From the NCBI GenBank assembly GCA_022564935.1, contig JADFKM010000032.1, positions 1 through 22,427 on the forward strand: a DNA stretch of 22,427 bases, given 5' to 3'. Below the pieces are notes generated by a model that was not told where the DNA came from, made no database searches, and saw only the letters and a program-made list of their open reading frames with translations. The DNA is from Candidatus Dadabacteria bacterium. GTDB lineage: Bacteria > Desulfobacterota_D > UBA1144 > Nemesobacterales > JADFKM01. Below are positions 3,652 through 12,048 of this stretch, piece after piece. A program made the position numbers and the translations under genes. Position 1 is the first letter of the stretch; each line of letters starts with the position of its first letter.

Positions 3652-4965
3652 CTAACCTTCAGTATTACTCCTGCCAAACGCAAAGTATTTGAACCCCTTC
3701 TCGGCGAGCTTTCTGGGATCGTAGAGGTTCCTCCCGTCAAAAATCACTGCTCCCGACATGGAGCTTTTCAGCCTGTCAAAATCCGGCTGCCTGTACTCGT
3801 TCCACTCGGTAAGCACCACTAGGGCATCGGCGCCCCCGCAGGCGTCATAGCTGGATTCCACATACTCCACCCGGTCGCCCAAGCACAGTCTCGCATTTTC
3901 AATAGCCGCCGGGTCATGCACGGCCACCCGGCCGCCGTGAGAGAGTATCCTCTCGATAACGAAAAGGGACGGGGCCTCGCGAATATCATCGGTTCTCGGT
4001 TTAAAGGACAGCCCCCACACCCCAAACCTCCTGCCTTTCAAATCCCCCCCGAAAAAGTCCAAGATACCCTCGAAGAACCGCTCTCTCTGCATCCGGTTAA
4101 CTTCTTCCGTCGCACTGCATACCTTTAGCTCATACCCCAATTCCCTGGCCGTTTGAATAATGGCTTTCACATCCTTGGGAAAGCACGACCCCCCGTAGCC
4201 GACCCCGGGGAAAAGGTAGTGCCTGCCAATTCTAGAATCGGCGCCCATAGCCACCCTGACCTCCGCTACGTCGGCCCCGACAAGGTCACACAAGTTAGCC
4301 ATTTCATTCATGAACGATATCCTGGTGGCGAGCATCGCATTGGAGGCGTACTTTGCTATCTCAGAAGAGCGTATCGAAACGACTATAGTCCTGTCCCCGG
4401 AGCGCATGAACGGCTGATAAAGCTCCTTCAATACTTCACCCACCGATGGGTTGTCGACGCCAATAACAACCCTGTCGGGCTTCATAAAGTCTTCGACCGC
4501 AGCGCCCTCCTTCAAAAACTCCGGGTTTGAGGCGACATCGAACTCAACCTGGGTGTTCTGTCCCACTAATTCCCTAACCTTCTCTGTGGTGCCCACGGGC
4601 ACCGTGCTCTTTGTCACGATTATTTTGTAATCGTACAGCAGCTTCCCAATCGAGCGCGCTACATCGAGCACGGCGCCGAGGTCGGCCGAGCCGTCTTCGC
4701 GCGGGGGGGTCGATACGGCTATGAATATTATGTGCGAGTTTCTAACCACATGTTCAAGGTCGGTCGTAAAGCTCAGCCTGTTCTCCCGGATGTTCCTTTC
4801 AATCAGCTCCCTGAGGCCGGGCTCATAGATATGCAGCACTCCACCTTTAATGAGTTCTATCTTTTCAGTATCCACATCCATACAAATCACGCTGTTTCCG
4901 CTCTCCGCAAAGCAAGAGCCGGTAACAAGGCCTACACATCCGGTTCCAATCACACCTATGTCCAT
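3652..4965 (-). CDS. ugd: UDP-glucose 6-dehydrogenase
   Basis: A cytoplasmic NAD-dependent enzyme that oxidises UDP-glucose to UDP-glucuronate, a precursor for capsule, exopolysaccharide and modified lipid A sugars. It has 437 residues, the usual length. The N-terminal Rossmann motif is GVIGTGCVGLVTG. Lys205 lies in SSEIAKYASNA, and the catalytic Cys261 lies in GVGYGGSCFPKDV. The C-terminal UDP-binding domain includes WGLSFKPRTDDIREAPS. The related GDP-mannose dehydrogenases are less likely given this pattern. The start ATG at 4965 has AGGAG eight bases upstream. That ribosome-binding site lies inside the 20-bp repeat that flanks the AT-rich island, so the native promoter of ugd has probably been displaced by the island. 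Transcription may now come from the SPARTA operon or from the 98-base gap after it. Confidence 0.95.
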   Translation of the reverse strand: MDIGVIGTGCVGLVTGSCFAESGNSVICMDVDTEKIELIKGGVLHIYEPGLRELIERNIRENRLSFTTDLEHVVRNSHIIFIAVSTPPREDGSADLGAVLDVARSIGKLLYDYKIIVTKSTVPVGTTEKVRELVGQNTQVEFDVASNPEFLKEGAAVEDFMKPDRVVIGVDNPSVGEVLKELYQPFMRSGDRTIVVSIRSSEIAKYASNAMLATRISFMNEMANLCDLVGADVAEVRVAMGADSRIGRHYLFPGVGYGGSCFPKDVKAIIQTARELGYELKVCSATEEVNRMQRERFFEGILDFFGGDLKGRRFGVWGLSFKPRTDDIREAPSLFVIERILSHGGRVAVHDPAAIENARLCLGDRVEYVESSYDACGGADALVVLTEWNEYRQPDFDRLKSSMSGAVIFDGRNLYDPRKLAEKGFKYFAFGRSNTEG

Positions 4966-4968
4966 TCT

Positions 4969-4988
4969 TAAGCTCCTGAAGTTCCGTT
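4969..4988. repeat. Left copy of the 20-bp direct repeat bounding the island
   Basis: TAAGCTCCTGAAGTTCCGTT occurs here and again, identical and in the same orientation, at 8042-8061. Similarity continues imperfectly for about 15 bases to the right (11 of 15 match). This copy contains the ribosome-binding site of ugd. The two copies bracket exactly the AT-rich TIR-APAZ/Argonaute segment, which suggests a duplication made when that segment entered. Confidence 0.9.
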
Positions 4989-4989
4989 T

Positions 4990-5010
4990 AAGCAGTACTG
5001 CTTTTTTATT
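4990..5010 (+). terminator. Perfect 14-bp palindrome followed by a T run
   Basis: AAGCAGTACTGCTT (4990-5003) is a perfect palindrome, and T6 then ATTT follow on the plus strand, which is the layout of a short intrinsic terminator. No plus-strand gene ends here. On the minus strand the same hairpin has no U-tail. It may instead be a protein-binding site between the island and ugd. Confidence 0.35.
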
Positions 5011-5015
5011 TCTCT

Positions 5016-5055
5016 ATTCATAGAACATCATTATATTGAAATGATGTCTATGAAT
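5016..5055 (-). other. Long imperfect inverted repeat just after the Argonaute gene
   Basis: Left arm ATTCATAGAACATCATT (5016-5032) and right arm AATGATGTCTATGAAT (5040-5055) pair over 16 bases with one bulge, around a 7-base loop. The hairpin begins 8 bases after the Argonaute stop codon. No U-tract follows it, so it is not a classical intrinsic terminator. It could protect the 3' end, act as an operator, or be a remnant of a mobile-element end. A TATAAT-like box on the minus strand (5030-5035) lies inside the hairpin and could give ugd a new promoter, though no good -35 box is visible. Confidence 0.6.
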
Positions 5056-5063
5056 CACTCAAA

Positions 5064-6569
5064 TTAAATATAATGTTTAAATGTCAATACTCCTATTTCT
5101 TTCGTGGGCCCCGCAGTTAATATTTCACCGATTAAATCTGCAAATTTTAAAGTTACTGGAACACCATCACCATAAATACAAGTATTATAGTTGAGTTTAG
5201 TAAGGGATAGGATATCCTTGCAAACTTGTACAATATCAGCCTCGCCTTTTACAATTTCAACACTGAGAGGATTAGGAGTTTCTAAACCCATAACCGTTTG
5301 AATTCTTGGTATAAATCCTTTTGTCCATAGAAAGGCTTCTCTTTCATCAATTACTAAAGCCATACCTCTCAGTATGGGATAAGCGTAATCTCTATACAGC
5401 TTAAATACCCTGTCATCTCTAATCCTAACGCCTATAACTTTTGATTTATCTCTAGCTGCTTCTTCGAATCCTTCCCATTCCTCATCATTGAAATAAGTTT
5501 TTGCATGTATAAAGATTTCTTTGGGATAATCTTCATTTTTTTCATCGAAAGTTTTTAGTGCCTTCTCGATTAACTCTTTTGCGCTTTCCTTTGATAAATG
5601 AAACTCCCCGATTTTTGGATTATACCAGGGGCCTACATTTCCTCTGAATACCATGCCATCCCCTGAGTCAAGGAACATTTGCGCAGCACAACATGCTGTT
5701 TTTTCATCTGAAGCTGTATCTATTCTTTTATAAACTAATCCGACATAAGAGACACCTTTCCGAACACTTCCTAGCTTCCAAGGTAAACCTCCACTCTTAT
5801 AATACAGTGTAGTTGAGATGCTCCAAGCTTTAGCTGAATCAAAAATTTCTTCAATCTCTATCCCTCTTTTTGTAAATATTTCTCTATAGGCGATAGTACT
5901 CTCTTTAATTATCTGTGTAATAATTCCATCTTCCAATAATCTCGTCTTCAACTGATTATGGAAGTTAACTTCATACTGATAAGCCTCTTGGAGTTTCTGA
6001 TCTTCAGAAAAAAGAAATAATGCTCGGCTATTCCTTGAATATTTACTCTTAAGTCCAATTTTTATATTGTCTTCAGAAGGTGGGATTTTTGATTTAGGAC
6101 GGCCATATGTATATACCTCATCAGGAATAACAACGAACCAAACAACTACAGGAATTTCCTCTTCCCTTTTAAATCTGATTAACTTATCAGCAAATAAATT
6201 GACAAGATTGTATACCCTCTGGTGAGAGTCTTGGTACTTCAAATACTTTATTATATCGTTTTTATCAATGTCTAATTCTTGTACTGCACTTAAATTTAGG
6301 CTGAATTCAAAAGCTGCTTCGATTCCAGGGAAGAAGGGCCTTGCAAAATCTTCTTCCTTACTATAAACAGGTTTTTCTATGCTTTTTAACCACTCAATCA
6401 GCCGACTTCTACCGAAATAAGTACCAATAATCCCGATGTTTGTAAATTTTATATCCTTTCTAGTGTAAGGGCCAAAGAGTGTTATGCCATCTCTAGGATC
6501 AATTGATTTTTGATTATATCCAAACGATAATAAAGGCTCTCTTAAATGGATTAATCTTACATTTCTCAT
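5064..6569 (-). CDS. Short prokaryotic Argonaute (MID-PIWI), SPARTA type, catalytically inactive
   Basis: This 501-residue protein carries only MID and PIWI regions; no N or PAZ domain is present. The MID part lies roughly at 120-240, with AYQYEVNFHNQLKTRLL (196-212) holding likely guide-phosphate contacts such as His204 and Lys208. The PIWI part starts near KAWSISTTLYYKSGGLPWKL. Where active Argonautes have the first catalytic Asp this one reads YVGLVYKR (275-282), and the later RDG-like position reads FIHAKTYFN. The DEDX tetrad is therefore absent. It should act as a guide-RNA and target-DNA sensor, not a slicer. It lies 12 bases after the TIR-APAZ gene, as expected for a heterodimeric SPARTA complex. 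The ATG at 6569 has no Shine-Dalgarno sequence, only AT-rich sequence before it. The gene is strongly AT-rich compared with its neighbours, consistent with transfer. Confidence 0.88.
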   Translation of the reverse strand: MRNVRLIHLREPLLSFGYNQKSIDPRDGITLFGPYTRKDIKFTNIGIIGTYFGRSRLIEWLKSIEKPVYSKEEDFARPFFPGIEAAFEFSLNLSAVQELDIDKNDIIKYLKYQDSHQRVYNLVNLFADKLIRFKREEEIPVVVWFVVIPDEVYTYGRPKSKIPPSEDNIKIGLKSKYSRNSRALFLFSEDQKLQEAYQYEVNFHNQLKTRLLEDGIITQIIKESTIAYREIFTKRGIEIEEIFDSAKAWSISTTLYYKSGGLPWKLGSVRKGVSYVGLVYKRIDTASDEKTACCAAQMFLDSGDGMVFRGNVGPWYNPKIGEFHLSKESAKELIEKALKTFDEKNEDYPKEIFIHAKTYFNDEEWEGFEEAARDKSKVIGVRIRDDRVFKLYRDYAYPILRGMALVIDEREAFLWTKGFIPRIQTVMGLETPNPLSVEIVKGEADIVQVCKDILSLTKLNYNTCIYGDGVPVTLKFADLIGEILTAGPTKEIGVLTFKHYI

Positions 6570-6581
6570 TTTAACAAAAAC

Positions 6582-7973
6582 TTAGGTTTCTACATCTTGG
6601 TAATACTCATCTACATTCTTACTTATACTAATTAAGTTTTGCCTTTCTCTTGCTTCGGGTTGGTTGTATCCAATATTAGAATAAAAAGACAGGGTTAGTA
6701 AAGGCATTTTTAAAGTAAAATCTTTATTTAGAGGTATTTCTGTCTTTCCATTCTCATCTTTGATTGCATTAATAAAAGCTATAAGTTGATCTCTCCATTC
6801 TTCATTAAACCATTTCTTGCCTTTATTTCTTCTTGCGGAATGTAGTCGTTTACTATCTTTCCAGATATGATAGCCGTTATCAGAAAACAATATATGAGAC
6901 TTTAAACTAAAACACACCGTAGGATATAAAAGCGTCTTTGAAGAAACTGCGAAATGCCAATTTCCAACTTTGTTATCATTAATCTTATATCTACCAACTA
7001 AGTTTTTTGTCTTTTCTCTATTCGGATAACTAAACTTAACTCTGTTTTTTTCCAATTTCAGTTTCGGAAAAAAGTATGCATTAGATTTATTAGCCATCTC
7101 ATACCAATATAATCCTCTCCTTTTCATCAATAAATGGAAGGTTCTATTTAGCAGCCAGTTCAACAAGTTCTTAGCATTCAAAAGAGTCGGGAAAGTATCC
7201 CTATCGAAACCATTAAGAATGCTAGAAGATCCGATTTGATATTTTTTTATTGGAAGGATTTCTAAATCATCATTTTGTTTATTTATAGTTTTTATTTCAT
7301 CGGTAAAAGTTACTAAAATATTTCCATGCCTGATTATTGGATACTCAAAATATTCTGCATAAATTGTTTTTGCCTGTTTCTCATTTTCGTACTGGTATAA
7401 GTATAGATTTTCAGGCAATTCTTCTATTGGCCACCAATTGCTATAATATTTTTCCTTTTTTTTGTATAAGCCAAATTTAGTTGTAAATTCGTTTTCGTAC
7501 CAAGATATGACAGATCTATTATCACCGACAGTATCTTTAGGAACCTTGTCTTTTTCAAGCTTTTTGATTAATTGTTTTAATCCTACTGCCCAATTACTGT
7601 GGAATGTTATATGCTTGTATCGATTCAATCCTATAAAAGAATTGAAAGGTGCATCCTCATCAATATTCAAGGGAATTATAAGATCTTTTAATCCTAATTT
7701 TTTTGCGATACTTTCGGCGAGACTGATTTCTTTGTCAATTCCGTCCTTTAAAACACCTGGTTCATTACAAATGGAATTTGAGAAAACGAGTAGAAATTTT
7801 ATCGTATTATTTCTAATTTCATTATCAATTTCAGACCAGAACTTTTCGCCTCCGATTAAGCCCTCAAGGTCACACCAAACCTTGTATCCTAAAAGTTGCA
7901 ATCTTGAAGCTAACCAAATTGTAAATTCATTGTCTTCCGGATTTGCATGGCTTATGAATAAGGTTTTTCTCAT
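6582..7973 (-). CDS. TIR-APAZ effector of a SPARTA defence system
   Basis: This protein has 463 residues. The N-terminal TIR domain (about 1-135) opens with KTLFISHANPEDNEF and GYKVWCD. The likely NADase glutamate is Glu82, in KDGIDKEISLAE, judged by position against the family. The rest is an APAZ domain, recognisable by MANKSNAYFF, WHFAVSSKTLLYP and LHSARRNKGKKWFNEEWRDQL. In studied SPARTA systems the TIR-APAZ chain pairs with short Argonaute. On guide-RNA-directed binding of invader DNA, four heterodimers assemble, TIR hydrolyses NAD(P)+, and the cell dies or stalls. Here it is the first gene of a two-gene minus-strand operon. No Shine-Dalgarno sequence precedes the ATG at 7973, as in the partner gene. 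Function is inferred from family resemblance, because no experiment tests this locus. Confidence 0.88.
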   Translation of the reverse strand: MRKTLFISHANPEDNEFTIWLASRLQLLGYKVWCDLEGLIGGEKFWSEIDNEIRNNTIKFLLVFSNSICNEPGVLKDGIDKEISLAESIAKKLGLKDLIIPLNIDEDAPFNSFIGLNRYKHITFHSNWAVGLKQLIKKLEKDKVPKDTVGDNRSVISWYENEFTTKFGLYKKKEKYYSNWWPIEELPENLYLYQYENEKQAKTIYAEYFEYPIIRHGNILVTFTDEIKTINKQNDDLEILPIKKYQIGSSSILNGFDRDTFPTLLNAKNLLNWLLNRTFHLLMKRRGLYWYEMANKSNAYFFPKLKLEKNRVKFSYPNREKTKNLVGRYKINDNKVGNWHFAVSSKTLLYPTVCFSLKSHILFSDNGYHIWKDSKRLHSARRNKGKKWFNEEWRDQLIAFINAIKDENGKTEIPLNKDFTLKMPLLTLSFYSNIGYNQPEARERQNLISISKNVDEYYQDVET

Positions 7974-8041
7974 ATAAACTATTTTAATTCATGTATTACT
8001 AAACTTAAACAACTTGCTTATTTCTTGTAATTCCTTTTGAG

Positions 8042-8061
8042 TAAGCTCCTGAAGTTCCGTT
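8042..8061. repeat. Right copy of the 20-bp direct repeat bounding the island
   Basis: Identical to 4969-4988, same orientation, with copy starts 3,073 bases apart. It lies 68 bases upstream of the TIR-APAZ start codon. Read on the minus strand it still carries AGGAG, but no ugd reading frame follows. It is probably the stranded half of the original ugd leader, or a target duplication. Confidence 0.9.
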
Positions 8062-8503
8062 CAACCGGTACAGCGTGTGCAGAAAAGTTCGCTATTAGAG
8101 CACATATGTTTCTCGTCGAATTGCAAAGTATTTACCACAAAGGTCGAATATAACCAAAAATGAAACTTTAAATCCAGCGAAATAGACCGTTGTTTTTCTC
8201 CGGTTATAAATCCTAATTAACGCAGCTTTAAGTTCACATCAATAATAAAACCGCTTTGAGCAAAACACCCTATCCTAAGATTAAAATACCAAGTATTAAA
8301 ATGCCTAAGTTTAAAAAATCTCCCGATACATTCTCAAAACAAGTACAATCTTCAATTCTTGGCCAATTATCATACTCAAGCAGGGAGTATTGTAAAAAAC
8401 GACCCCATGTTTTTATCCCCGGCTTCTATACACCGGTATCATTATAATATAAGATAATTTCCGTACATTACTCTACTATTTCCCCTGAGCTAGAAACCCC
8501 AAC
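8062..8503. other. AT-rich intergenic stretch between the island and recF
   Basis: This 442-base stretch has no convincing gene. It contains a three-unit 15-bp tandem repeat (8274-8318) within an open frame that starts at TTG 8256 and lacks a ribosome-binding site. A TATAAT box (8443-8448) lies 55 bases before recF without a clear -35 element; it is the best candidate for the recF promoter. The part near 8062 may be the ancestral upstream region of ugd. Confidence 0.5.
8274..8318 (+). repeat. Three imperfect 15-bp tandem repeats
   Basis: Units are CCTAAGATTAAAATA, CCAAGTATTAAAATG and CCTAAGTTTAAAAAA. In the frame opened at TTG 8256 they would encode PKIKI-PSIKM-PKFKK inside a 63-residue peptide. 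There is no ribosome-binding site and no ATG, so coding is doubtful. The repeats themselves are clear. Confidence 0.6.
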
Positions 8504-9589
8504 GTGCAGCTTAAATCTCTGACGCTCCAAAATTTCAAAAACTACCGTCGGGAAACATTCAGTTTTCACGACCGCTTCAACCTCATTACGGGGGAAAACG
8601 GCCATGGCAAGACCAACCTCCTCGAAGCCATCCACTTTCTCTCTACAACCAGGCCGTTCAAGCAGCATAAGATGGAAGACATCATCTGCTTCGGCCAGAC
8701 CGAGGGTCGGATTAAGGGTGAGTTTAATACCCGTAGCGGCCTGAGCGAGGTGCACATTATGCTCGACCGTGGGGGGAAAACTATTAAGCTCAACGGCAAA
8801 GTGCTCTACGACTCTAGGAAGATCACCGGCCGGTTCAATGTGGTAACATTCCTGCCCGAAGACACCGAATATGTAAAAGGGTCTCCCGCGGATAGGAGGC
8901 GGTATCTGGACATATTGGTATCGAATTTCGAGCCCGTCCATCCCCGGGACCTGAAGCAGTACTCCCGCGCGGTATCACAAAGAAACGCCATTTTGCAAAA
9001 AGCCACAAAAAAGAGCGATATCCTGGAGCTCTGGGACGGGCAAATCGCCGAGCTGGGCGGGCGCATCATGAACAGGCGTATCGCAACAATCGAGAAGCTC
9101 AAGCCCCTGGTGGCAGGGATTTACAACACCATAGCTCACCAGAAAAAACAAATAAAAGTGGAGTACAACTCTCCTGTATCGACCGAAGGAAACCTCGAAG
9201 AAAATATACGCGAGGGTCTGCAGACAAATCTTCAGCACGATATAAAACGCGGACATACCACCGTAGGCCCCCACCGAGACCAGCCGGAATTCATCCTGGA
9301 CGGCAGGGACGCCTCGAAGTTCGCATCCCAGGGAGAGGCAAAGACCCTGGCTATTGCCCTGAGAGCGGCCGAGATATCCCTCATCCGCAGCATCCTGGGC
9401 AGGCTGCCCATCGTACTGCTGGACGACATCTCAAGCGAGCTTGACAGGGGCAGGAAGCTCTTCTTGTTCAAGCTGCTGAGCGAGTTCCAGGGGCAGATAT
9501 TCATCACCGCCCTTGAAACGACAGACGTCATATACGAAGGGCAGAAGAAAACGTTTCTCATAAAAGACGGCAAGGCGAAGACGGCCTGA
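8504..9589 (+). CDS. recF: DNA replication and repair protein RecF
   Basis: An SMC-like ATPase that binds DNA at single-strand/double-strand junctions and, with RecO and RecR, loads RecA at gaps. It has 361 residues, the normal size. The N-terminus LKSLTLQNFKNYRRETF is typical. Walker A is GENGHGKTN, the ABC-type signature is SQGEAKTLAIALRA, and Walker B is IVLLDDISSELD. The start is GTG at 8504: an in-frame TGA lies six codons upstream and no ATG is available between. The Shine-Dalgarno sequence is weak. Unusually it is not beside dnaA, dnaN or gyrB. It is instead followed 57 bases later by hpt and preceded by the SPARTA island. Codon use and G+C match the chromosome, so it is a resident gene. 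Confidence 0.96.
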   Translation: MQLKSLTLQNFKNYRRETFSFHDRFNLITGENGHGKTNLLEAIHFLSTTRPFKQHKMEDIICFGQTEGRIKGEFNTRSGLSEVHIMLDRGGKTIKLNGKVLYDSRKITGRFNVVTFLPEDTEYVKGSPADRRRYLDILVSNFEPVHPRDLKQYSRAVSQRNAILQKATKKSDILELWDGQIAELGGRIMNRRIATIEKLKPLVAGIYNTIAHQKKQIKVEYNSPVSTEGNLEENIREGLQTNLQHDIKRGHTTVGPHRDQPEFILDGRDASKFASQGEAKTLAIALRAAEISLIRSILGRLPIVLLDDISSELDRGRKLFLFKLLSEFQGQIFITALETTDVIYEGQKKTFLIKDGKAKTA

Positions 9590-9638
9590 TGGGAAAAGAC
9601 TGCGCTACAACCAATCACTGGCGTCACGGAGAGTATTC

Positions 9639-9650
9639 ATGAACATATGA
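9639..9650 (+). promoter_or_regulatory. Three-codon mini-ORF overlapping the hpt start
   Basis: ATG-AAC-ATA-TGA follows GGAGAG (9628-9633) at five bases, the ideal distance. Its TGA overlaps the hpt ATG in an ATGA arrangement. The same ribosome-binding site is 13 bases from the hpt start, which is too far to be good. Ribosomes may thus read M-N-I, stop and re-initiate on hpt. Confidence 0.35.
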
Positions 9651-10186
9651 TCCGAGAGATAAAGGGCAGGAAGCTGAAGGAGGTGTATTCCGAAAAACAG
9701 ATCGCCGGCAAAGTCCGGGAGCTTGCGGGAAGGATTCGGGCCGATTACGAGGGCAAAGACCCCATCCTCATCGGCGCTCTCAAAGGGGCCTTCATATTCC
9801 TCGCCGACCTGGTGCGCGAAATCCCCTTTCCCGTGCAGGTAGAGTTCGTGCGCCTCTCAAGCTACAGGAACGGCATGGAGCCCGGAGACCTAGACGTTCT
9901 GCTTGATTTGACTATCCCCGTTAAAGGCCGTCATGTGCTCATAGTAGAGGACATCATCGACACCGGTGTAACCTCCGTTGCAATAAAGAACATACTGCTT
10001 GCTCGAAGCCCCGCAACGCTTCGGATCTGCGCCCTTGTGGACAATCCGAGCAAACGCAGGGTTCAGATTGACGCCGATTACGTAGGGTTCCGACACGACG
10101 ACGGGTTCATCGTGGGCTACGGTACCGACTGGGGAGAGGAGGGTAGGAATTTGAGGGAGATTTATGTGTTGGAAGAAGAGGGTTGA
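9647..10186 (+). CDS. hpt: Hypoxanthine phosphoribosyltransferase
   Basis: A cytoplasmic purine-salvage enzyme that joins hypoxanthine (and often guanine) to PRPP, giving IMP or GMP. It has 179 residues, the family length. The loop ALKGAFIFLADL (44-55) and the region EFVRLSSY are characteristic. The PRPP-binding motif is VLIVEDIIDTGVTS (97-110), with the acidic pair Glu101-Asp102. The C-terminal motif DDGFIVGYGTDWGEEGRNL is the conserved metal and purine contact region. The start at 9647 overlaps the stop of a three-codon mini-ORF that sits better on the ribosome-binding site. It lies 57 bases after recF and may be co-transcribed with it. Xanthine-specific enzymes share the fold, but this sequence fits the hpt group. 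Confidence 0.94.
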   Translation: MIREIKGRKLKEVYSEKQIAGKVRELAGRIRADYEGKDPILIGALKGAFIFLADLVREIPFPVQVEFVRLSSYRNGMEPGDLDVLLDLTIPVKGRHVLIVEDIIDTGVTSVAIKNILLARSPATLRICALVDNPSKRRVQIDADYVGFRHDDGFIVGYGTDWGEEGRNLREIYVLEEEG

Positions 10187-10588: not shown

Positions 10589-10609
10589 TTGTATAGGAGC
10601 TGTGTATAT

Positions 10610-11377
10610 ATGTATAAAAAGTATAATAAGCTTTTACTTCTTTTAATTATAGGTGTCTTGCCTTTCTTTATTATTGGTGGGTGTAACGGCGACGGCGATA
10701 GTGGTAACGACGGGGATCAGATCCCCTTCGCCGATGCGGAGGTCTTCTTTGAGTTCAACGCCACGGATCTCGATCTGGGCATTCAGATCTTCTTCGATGC
10801 AGAAGGCTGGCTAGAGGTTGAGGTCAGCGGCCCGAACGGCACGATCTTCAGGGTCGAGAACGCTGGAAGCTTGATGGAAATCGGCAGTACCGAGCTCTTC
10901 ACCGAGAGCGAGGAGCCGGAGCTCGACGAGTTCCCGATCGAAGAGTTCCTGGCACTGTTTCCTGAGGGGGAATATCAATTCTCTGGCACGACGGTTGACG
11001 GAGACGAGCTGGTGGGCACGGCGGAGCTGACGCACGACCTTCCGGCCGCGCCGAACATCACCTCGATCGGGAACCCCGTCATCGAATGGTGCGACACTTC
11101 AGAAGAAGGAGATCCAGCAATTGTCCGCTACCAGGTCATTGTCGAGTTCGTCGAGTTGGACGAGTTCGACGAGGAGACCGGACGCGTGTTCGAGTTTAGC
11201 GTCGACGTTCTGGCTGACCCCGAGGCCACGTGCTCCAATGGAACCCAGAGCGTGACGGTTCCGCCGGAGTTCTTCGAGAGCCTCGAAGAACTCGACGGCG
11301 AGTTCAAGGCCGAGGTGTTGGCGAGCGAGGAAAGCGGAAACAAGACCATCTCGGAGCAGGAATTCGAGTTGGAGTAG
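10610..11377 (+). CDS. Acidic putative lipoprotein of unknown function
   Basis: This protein has 255 residues from ATG 10610, with AGGAG ten bases upstream. A TTG at 10589 is in frame but lies before the ribosome-binding site. The N-terminus YKKYNKLLLLLIIGV with FFIIGGC is a lipoprotein signal with lipobox IGGC. The mature part starts Cys-Asn-Gly-Asp-Gly-Asp and is very rich in Asp and Glu, probably beta-rich, with a Cys pair (EWCDTS and ATCSNG) that could form a disulfide. The signal region is AT-rich, and from about 10685 the DNA turns strongly GC-rich, as if a foreign mature domain were joined to a local signal. The stop is followed by a GAG/TAG repeat containing three in-frame TAGs. I do not recognise the family. 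It is likely membrane-anchored in the periplasm or outer membrane. Confidence 0.75.
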   Translation: MYKKYNKLLLLLIIGVLPFFIIGGCNGDGDSGNDGDQIPFADAEVFFEFNATDLDLGIQIFFDAEGWLEVEVSGPNGTIFRVENAGSLMEIGSTELFTESEEPELDEFPIEEFLALFPEGEYQFSGTTVDGDELVGTAELTHDLPAAPNITSIGNPVIEWCDTSEEGDPAIVRYQVIVEFVELDEFDEETGRVFEFSVDVLADPEATCSNGTQSVTVPPEFFESLEELDGEFKAEVLASEESGNKTISEQEFELE

Positions 11378-11418
11378 GAGGAGTAGGAGTAGGCCCGGAC
11401 GCCACCTCCGTGGGATCC

Positions 11419-12048
11419 ATGTGCTCCATTCTCATCCCGCATCACAGCCCTAGCGGAGAGCATGTTAGAGATTTGAGCCCTTTAGTGGTTGGCATTGTGC
11501 TAGTGCTTGAGGGTGTGGACGACGAAGGCGTAGAGATCCGATTGGAAATTACCGTTTTGGATGAGACCGAAGAGGTCGCGGGCGTAACCACACGCGTAAT
11601 GGAGGCGGCGGAATTCGAGGACGGTGAACTCATCGAGGTCTCCAGGAACTTCTTTGCCCAGGCCCCCGACGGCACCGTTTGCTACTTCGGCGAGGCTGTA
11701 AATGATTTCGAGGACGGCGAGATCGTTGGTCATGAAGGCGAATGGCGAGCGGGAAAGAACGGTAATCTCCCCGGGATCTTTATGCCGGCTGACCCGCAAG
11801 TCGGCGATGTGTATCAACAGGAAAACGCCCCCGGTATAGCCGAAGACCAGGCGGAAGTGGTTGCTTTGGGCGAGCCTATCGACGTTCCGGCGGGAATGTT
11901 CGACGATACGCTCACTACCGAGGACTGCAATCCGCTCGAAGACGGCGCAACTGACGAAAAGGTTTTCGTGCGTGGAATCGGTCTGGCGATCGACGAAGAT
12001 GCGGAATTAACCGAGTTTGACGAAGATGTGGTATTTGACCAGTTTTAG
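11419..12048 (+). CDS. Acidic hypothetical protein, likely missing its original 5' end
   Basis: The convincing homologous-looking part runs from about 11482 (PLVVGIVLVLEG) through EIRLEITVLDETEEVAG, SRNFFAQAPDGTVCYFGE, GHEGEWRAGKNGNLPGI, and MPADPQVGDVYQQENAPG to VRGIGLAIDEDAEL. This resembles a family of exported proteins of unknown function found in several environmental bacteria (recalled from memory). Relatives normally have a signal peptide and a clear NPYFPL-like start; here the upstream residues are unrelated. ATG 11419 is the only reasonable start, with a poor ribosome-binding site. The frame stays open upstream through the preceding gene, but that part is a shadow. It could be an intact cytoplasmic version, or a decayed gene that lost its secretion signal. 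The gene is GC-rich and acidic like its upstream neighbour. Confidence 0.6.
   Translation: MCSILIPHHSPSGEHVRDLSPLVVGIVLVLEGVDDEGVEIRLEITVLDETEEVAGVTTRVMEAAEFEDGELIEVSRNFFAQAPDGTVCYFGEAVNDFEDGEIVGHEGEWRAGKNGNLPGIFMPADPQVGDVYQQENAPGIAEDQAEVVALGEPIDVPAGMFDDTLTTEDCNPLEDGATDEKVFVRGIGLAIDEDAELTEFDEDVVFDQF

What the first reader, a model, noticed from the sequence alone, without database searches (positions are those of the whole stretch)
4969..8061. Perfect 20-bp direct repeat exactly bounds the SPARTA cassette and carries the ugd ribosome-binding site
TAAGCTCCTGAAGTTCCGTT appears at 4969-4988 and at 8042-8061, with weaker similarity continuing about 15 bases. Between them lies only the AT-rich operon, with no transposase or integrase. 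This suggests a two-gene minimal mobile unit, or a recombination scar, that split ugd from its old upstream region and duplicated its leader. Such self-contained repeat-bounded SPARTA cassettes are, as far as I know, little described.
Basis: seen in the sequence. Interest (0 to 1): 0.75.

Follow-up and report, generated by a model that had tools for sequence, protein, structure and literature searches.

The report
Defence gene pair bounded by repeats
In an uncultured Dadabacteria-like bacterium, a two-gene anti-phage (SPARTA) cassette sits between two identical 20-letter DNA repeats that look like the scar of a single past insertion just in front of a sugar-metabolism gene; the scar is real, but other SPARTA loci examined lack such repeats and nothing shows that the cassette can move by itself.

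Summary
TAAGCTCCTGAAGTTCCGTT occurs exactly twice in the 2-Mb genome, 75 bp beyond one end and 68 bp beyond the other end of a genuine SPARTA operon (TIR-APAZ plus short pAgo). A 9/13 similarity continues on one side only. This is not chance, and none of 20 other SPARTA loci has flanking repeats above background. The pAgo tree places this SPARTA with a G223/Bacteroidia-type clade, apart from the only other Dadabacteria copy (G020), so it was acquired separately. Best reading: an att-like insertion scar. A compact SPARTA segment integrated by single-site (Campbell-type) recombination in the ugd leader, probably by a tyrosine recombinase supplied in trans; the enzyme is inferred. The 'two-gene minimal mobile unit' claim is not supported: no recombinase, no terminal inverted repeats, no termini shared with the nearest relative, no second insertion. 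No genome close enough to show the empty site is held. Defence genes in direct-repeat-flanked islands are already well known, so this is a new member of a known kind. Side result: G020's SPARTA replaced the middle of a variable hrcA-lpd intergenic spot without making repeats.

The parts
4969..4988 (+). left (ugd-proximal) copy of the exact 20-bp direct repeat; read on the minus strand it contains the ugd ribosome-binding site AGGAG
4989..5001 (+). imperfect continuation of the left repeat, 9/13 to 8062-8074; overlaps the palindrome AAGCAGTACTGCTT (4990-5003)
5018..5056 (.). stem-loop between the pAgo stop codon and the ugd leader; with the small palindrome, folding z = -2.9; no T-run after it on the minus strand
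5064..6569 (-). short prokaryotic Argonaute (MID-PIWI), 501 aa
   Evidence: PADLOC pAgo_I 2e-199; PDB short pAgo of SPARTA, 8fex 2e-149
6582..7973 (-). TIR-APAZ, 463 aa, partner of the pAgo
   Evidence: PADLOC 4e-146; Pfam TIR_2; PDB TIR-APAZ 8fex 1e-67
8042..8061 (+). right (recF-side) copy of the exact 20-bp direct repeat
8062..8074 (+). imperfect continuation of the right repeat, presumed chromosomal arm
3652..4965 (-). ugd (UDP-glucose/GDP-mannose dehydrogenase), native left neighbour; topA-ugd order kept in relatives
8504..9589 (+). recF-like ATPase, native right neighbour, divergent from ugd

Best explanation
The repeats are the scar of one insertion. A compact DNA segment (about 3.07 kb) carrying only a SPARTA operon integrated into the leader of ugd, in the gap between divergent ugd and recF, by recombination between a site on the incoming (probably circular) DNA and a chromosomal site sharing an identical 20-bp core and a partly matching 13-bp arm. 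The joined ends are the two hybrid junctions (attL/attR-like). Because the core contains the ugd RBS, ugd kept a working RBS while its old upstream DNA was moved 3 kb away; ugd now lies 98 bp downstream of the pAgo stop on the same strand. Most likely the recombination was done by a tyrosine recombinase supplied in trans or since lost. Shown: the exact repeat, its uniqueness, its placement, the one-sided arm similarity, the SPARTA identity and its separate acquisition. Inferred: the empty site, the circular form, the enzyme, and any effect on ugd expression.
For: Unique exact 20-bp repeat tightly bracketing the operon. One-sided similarity beyond the core, 9/13 versus 2/13, expected if two pre-existing partly matching sites recombined, not if a target was simply duplicated. 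No inverted repeats at the two ends. SPARTA in only 2 of 57 phylum genomes, the window's pAgo grouping with G223/Bacteroidia-type SPARTAs and G020's with alphaproteobacterial plasmid SPARTAs, both with high support. The genome encodes four phage-type integrases beyond the two best Xer-like hits, two of them beside tRNA-His and tRNA-Ala genes, so integrases able to act in trans are present. Published precedent: defence islands without transfer genes flanked by 14-bp direct repeats at a tyrosine-integrase core site (PMC12595487), and defence hotspots with no detectable mobile element (PMC10121019).
Against: No empty site could be examined. None of the genome's integrases is linked to this site, and two of them sit next to tRNA genes, which suggests other targets. 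The arm similarity (P about 0.003) is modest. No circular form is known. The 20-mer occurs in no viral contig.
Confidence: 0.5

Rival explanations
1. Integrase-independent capture: foreign DNA joined the chromosome through short homology (20-33 bp) by illegitimate or RecA-type single crossover of a circular molecule, giving the same hybrid repeats once, with no mobile element involved.
For: No recombinase in the unit; only one insertion; other SPARTA loci lack repeats; the other Dadabacteria SPARTA (G020) entered hrcA-lpd by a repeat-less replacement, so ordinary DNA exchange does bring in SPARTA in this order.
Against: Twenty identical bases shared by chance between a foreign segment and the ugd leader, placed within 75 bp of both operon ends, is a demanding coincidence unless the site was recognised.
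Confidence: 0.25
2. Target-site duplication by a transposase with a long stagger (20 bp), the transposon being non-autonomous.
For: Exact duplication flanking a foreign segment.
Against: No terminal inverted repeats; 20 bp is long for known DDE transposons (general knowledge); the similarity continuing outside the exact repeat on one side is not predicted.
Confidence: 0.1
3. Remnant of a larger island flanked by att sites, of which everything except SPARTA was deleted.
For: Direct-repeat-flanked islands usually carry an integrase (PMC12595487); islands often decay.
Against: Only 68 and 75 bp of non-coding DNA remain at the ends, with no gene fragments found by ORF listing.
Confidence: 0.1
4. 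The two copies are a shared regulatory leader (duplicated RBS or cis-element for both operons), not an insertion scar.
For: Both copies lie upstream of minus-strand genes; a stem-loop lies near the left copy.
Against: No Rfam match in the window; the right copy is 68 bp from the TIR-APAZ start, not at RBS distance; no copies before other genes in the genome.
Confidence: 0.04

Closest known systems
SPARTA (short pAgo + TIR-APAZ; PDB 8fex/8ffi, 8ifk, 8qlo)
   Same: Both proteins match over nearly full length, adjacent on one strand
   Different: Only the setting differs: a bare operon between 20-bp direct repeats; ordinary SPARTA otherwise
Integrase-dependent defence islands flanked by short direct repeats (e.g. 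I23/I44/I55 in Pseudomonas, PMC12595487)
   Same: Defence cargo, short exact direct repeats at the ends, one repeat copy overlapping a functional part of the host gene
   Different: No integrase or AlpA here; about 3 kb and two genes; the site is a gene leader, not tmRNA/tRNA
Defence hotspots without a recognisable mobile element (E. coli hotspot #37, PMC10121019)
   Same: Defence genes between housekeeping genes with no known mobility genes
   Different: Here a direct repeat marks the exact ends; only one genome is available

Membership tests
SPARTA | short pAgo (MID-PIWI only), related to solved SPARTA pAgos | tested here: met
   501 aa; PDB 8fex_B 2e-149 over residues 5-501; PADLOC pAgo_I
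SPARTA | TIR-APAZ partner in the same operon | tested here: met
   463 aa, 12 bp upstream of the pAgo ATG; TIR_2, TIR-APAZ 8fex_A 1e-67; candidate catalytic Glu at residue 82 in a stretch conserved with the solved protein
SPARTA | NAD(P)ase activated by guide RNA and target DNA | not testable with these tools
   needs biochemistry
Tyrosine-recombinase integrative element | identical core repeats at both ends | tested here: met
   20 bp exact, unique in the genome
Tyrosine-recombinase integrative element | encodes its own integrase | tested here: not met
   only the two SPARTA genes lie between the repeats
Tyrosine-recombinase integrative element | empty attB site with one core copy in relatives | tested here: inconclusive
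   no same-family genome held; the 20-mer is absent from relatives except chance-level 3-mismatch hits
DDE transposon / MITE-like unit | terminal inverted repeats | tested here: not met
   no inverted pair at the two ends
DDE transposon / MITE-like unit | several copies with the same ends | tested here: not met
   only two 20-mers in the genome

The most novel reading that the evidence does not exclude
SPARTA operons can travel as bare, recombinase-free two-gene cassettes that are integrated at att-like sites by an integrase borrowed from other elements (a minimal defence satellite).
Probability: 0.1. Interest if true: 0.7.

Novelty: new member of a known kind. Interest (0 to 1): 0.3.

Why it matters
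How small defence systems with no mobility genes move between genomes is an open question. A precise scar round a bare SPARTA operon gives one testable case: the junction sequences predict the empty site and the circular form. By itself it documents one horizontal acquisition and does not change what is known of SPARTA.

Tried and rejected
Empty site in close relatives: none held; ugd leaders of relatives (63-69% protein identity) show no recognisable 20-mer. Dispersed repeat family: rejected (3-mismatch hits in relatives are at or below the control rate). Flanking repeats as a general SPARTA feature: rejected; 20 other TIR-type loci give 7-13 bp, the same as cross-locus controls. The nearest relative (G223) has a 13/14 repeat 61/64 bp from its operon ends, suggestive but not significant over 20 loci; its flanking gene was found in no other genome of its family, so no empty site there either. 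Shared non-coding termini with that relative: none above shuffles. The 20-mer in viral contigs: none; SPARTA pAgo in phages or viral contigs: none. Right junction in plasmids: none. tRNA or Rfam RNA at the site: none.

Full report
Observation. The 20-mer TAAGCTCCTGAAGTTCCGTT is present at 4969-4988 and 8042-8061, identical, and nowhere else in the window or in the 1.99-Mb genome even with 3 mismatches. A shorter 16-mer with 2 mismatches finds three further places, about what its control gives. Ungapped extension gives 33 nt at 88%. Beyond the exact core the right-hand arms agree at 9 of 13 positions and the left-hand arms at 2 of 13; random pairs from the same regions reach 9/13 with frequency 0.003. 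In about 180 kb of the same genome, the window pair is the longest exact direct repeat at >700 bp spacing, apart from a 127-bp contig-end repeat on an integrase-containing contig.

What lies between. Two minus-strand genes, TIR-APAZ (6582-7973) and short pAgo (5064-6569), with strong PADLOC and PDB matches to SPARTA. The repeats are 68 bp upstream and 75 bp downstream of the operon. No other gene, no recombinase and no terminal inverted repeats were found. The neighbours ugd and recF appear native: topA-ugd order is kept in relatives, and recF homologues are found in nearly all of them, though not next to ugd.

Where it came from. The closest named relatives are Candidatus Dadabacteria; no other genome of the window's family is held. 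Only 2 of 57 genomes of the phylum have a related pAgo. In a maximum-likelihood tree the window's pAgo pairs with G223 (61% identity; 99/94 support, then 100/99 with one from G606), while G020's pAgo groups with alphaproteobacterial plasmid SPARTAs (100/100). The two Dadabacteria SPARTAs are therefore best read as separate acquisitions.

A comparison case. G020's SPARTA sits between divergent hrcA and lpd. Among 12 congeners, several have a short intergenic gap of 214-226 bp; others hold a 373-aa DUF4143 ATPase, a 239-aa protein of no Pfam family, or both. The 143-bp middle part of the empty allele is missing from G020, and no flanking repeat is seen. SPARTA there replaced the middle of a variable intergenic spot, unlike the repeat-bounded insertion in the window. 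Both SPARTA operons lie between divergent housekeeping genes, where insertion should do least harm (inference).

Is the repeat general? No. For 20 other TIR-type SPARTA loci (chromosomes and plasmids), the longest exact direct repeat between the two flanks (600 bp each, shorter at two contig ends) is 7-13 bp, equal to flanks paired across loci (6-13 bp). The nearest relative, G223, has a 13/14 repeat at 61 and 64 bp, a geometry similar to the window's 75 and 68, but this is not significant among 20 loci and could not be tested further.

Mechanism. An identical core with a partly matching arm on one side fits recombination between two pre-existing similar sites, as in attB x attP, better than duplication of a target by a staggered cut. 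Tyrosine integrases other than the two best Xer-like hits exist in the genome, two of them beside tRNA genes, so an enzyme acting in trans is possible. An integrase-free single crossover at a short shared stretch gives the same outcome and cannot be excluded. In either case the core carries the ugd RBS, so ugd kept its start signals. Its former upstream DNA now lies beyond the cassette; ugd is 98 bp downstream of pAgo with no terminator-like site on that strand between them and a stable stem-loop in the gap. Whether ugd is now co-transcribed with SPARTA is not known.

Known context. Islands with defence cargo and 14-bp direct repeats, dependent on a tyrosine integrase and lacking transfer genes, are described (PMC12595487), as are defence hotspots with no detectable mobile element (PMC10121019). 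The titles and abstracts found in the held literature gave no description of a bare SPARTA cassette between direct repeats, but that library is partial and most of those papers were not read. The window therefore adds one well-marked example to a known kind.

Verdict. Observation confirmed. Insertion scar likely (about 0.85 over all insertion mechanisms). Site-specific recombination is the most likely route (about 0.5). Self-contained mobile unit unproven and unlikely (about 0.1).

Noticed in passing
L145, L159-L164 (hrcA-lpd interval of genus g6): The gap between divergent hrcA and lpd is an exchange spot in this genus: empty in some species, holding a DUF4143 ATPase, a 239-aa protein of no Pfam family, both, or SPARTA in others, with no mobility genes seen.
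   Followed up: partly
L222 (G000:C7) 3733-3859 and 8476-8602: A 127-bp exact repeat 4743 bp apart, the second copy at the contig end, enclosing a tyrosine recombinase (6582-7550, minus strand); may be a circular or tandem element, or an assembly-graph loop.
   Followed up: no
L206 5032-5045 and 8093-8106: The nearest relative of this SPARTA (G223) has a 13/14 direct repeat CTTTACCACT[A/G]TTT 61 and 64 bp from its operon ends, a geometry like the window's; a Y1 (IS200-like) transposase gene lies nearby at 8802-9770.
   Followed up: partly
window about 7989-8061, minus strand: The right 20-mer and the DNA next to it can be read as TELQELTQKELQEISKLFKFSNT-stop, which looks like the tail of a coiled protein; possibly the truncated end of a donor gene upstream of TIR-APAZ. 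No start codon; weak.
   Followed up: no
window 10589-12048: Two overlapping plus-strand ORFs in different frames, the first with a lipoprotein-like signal; possibly adjacent secreted proteins or a frameshift.
   Followed up: no
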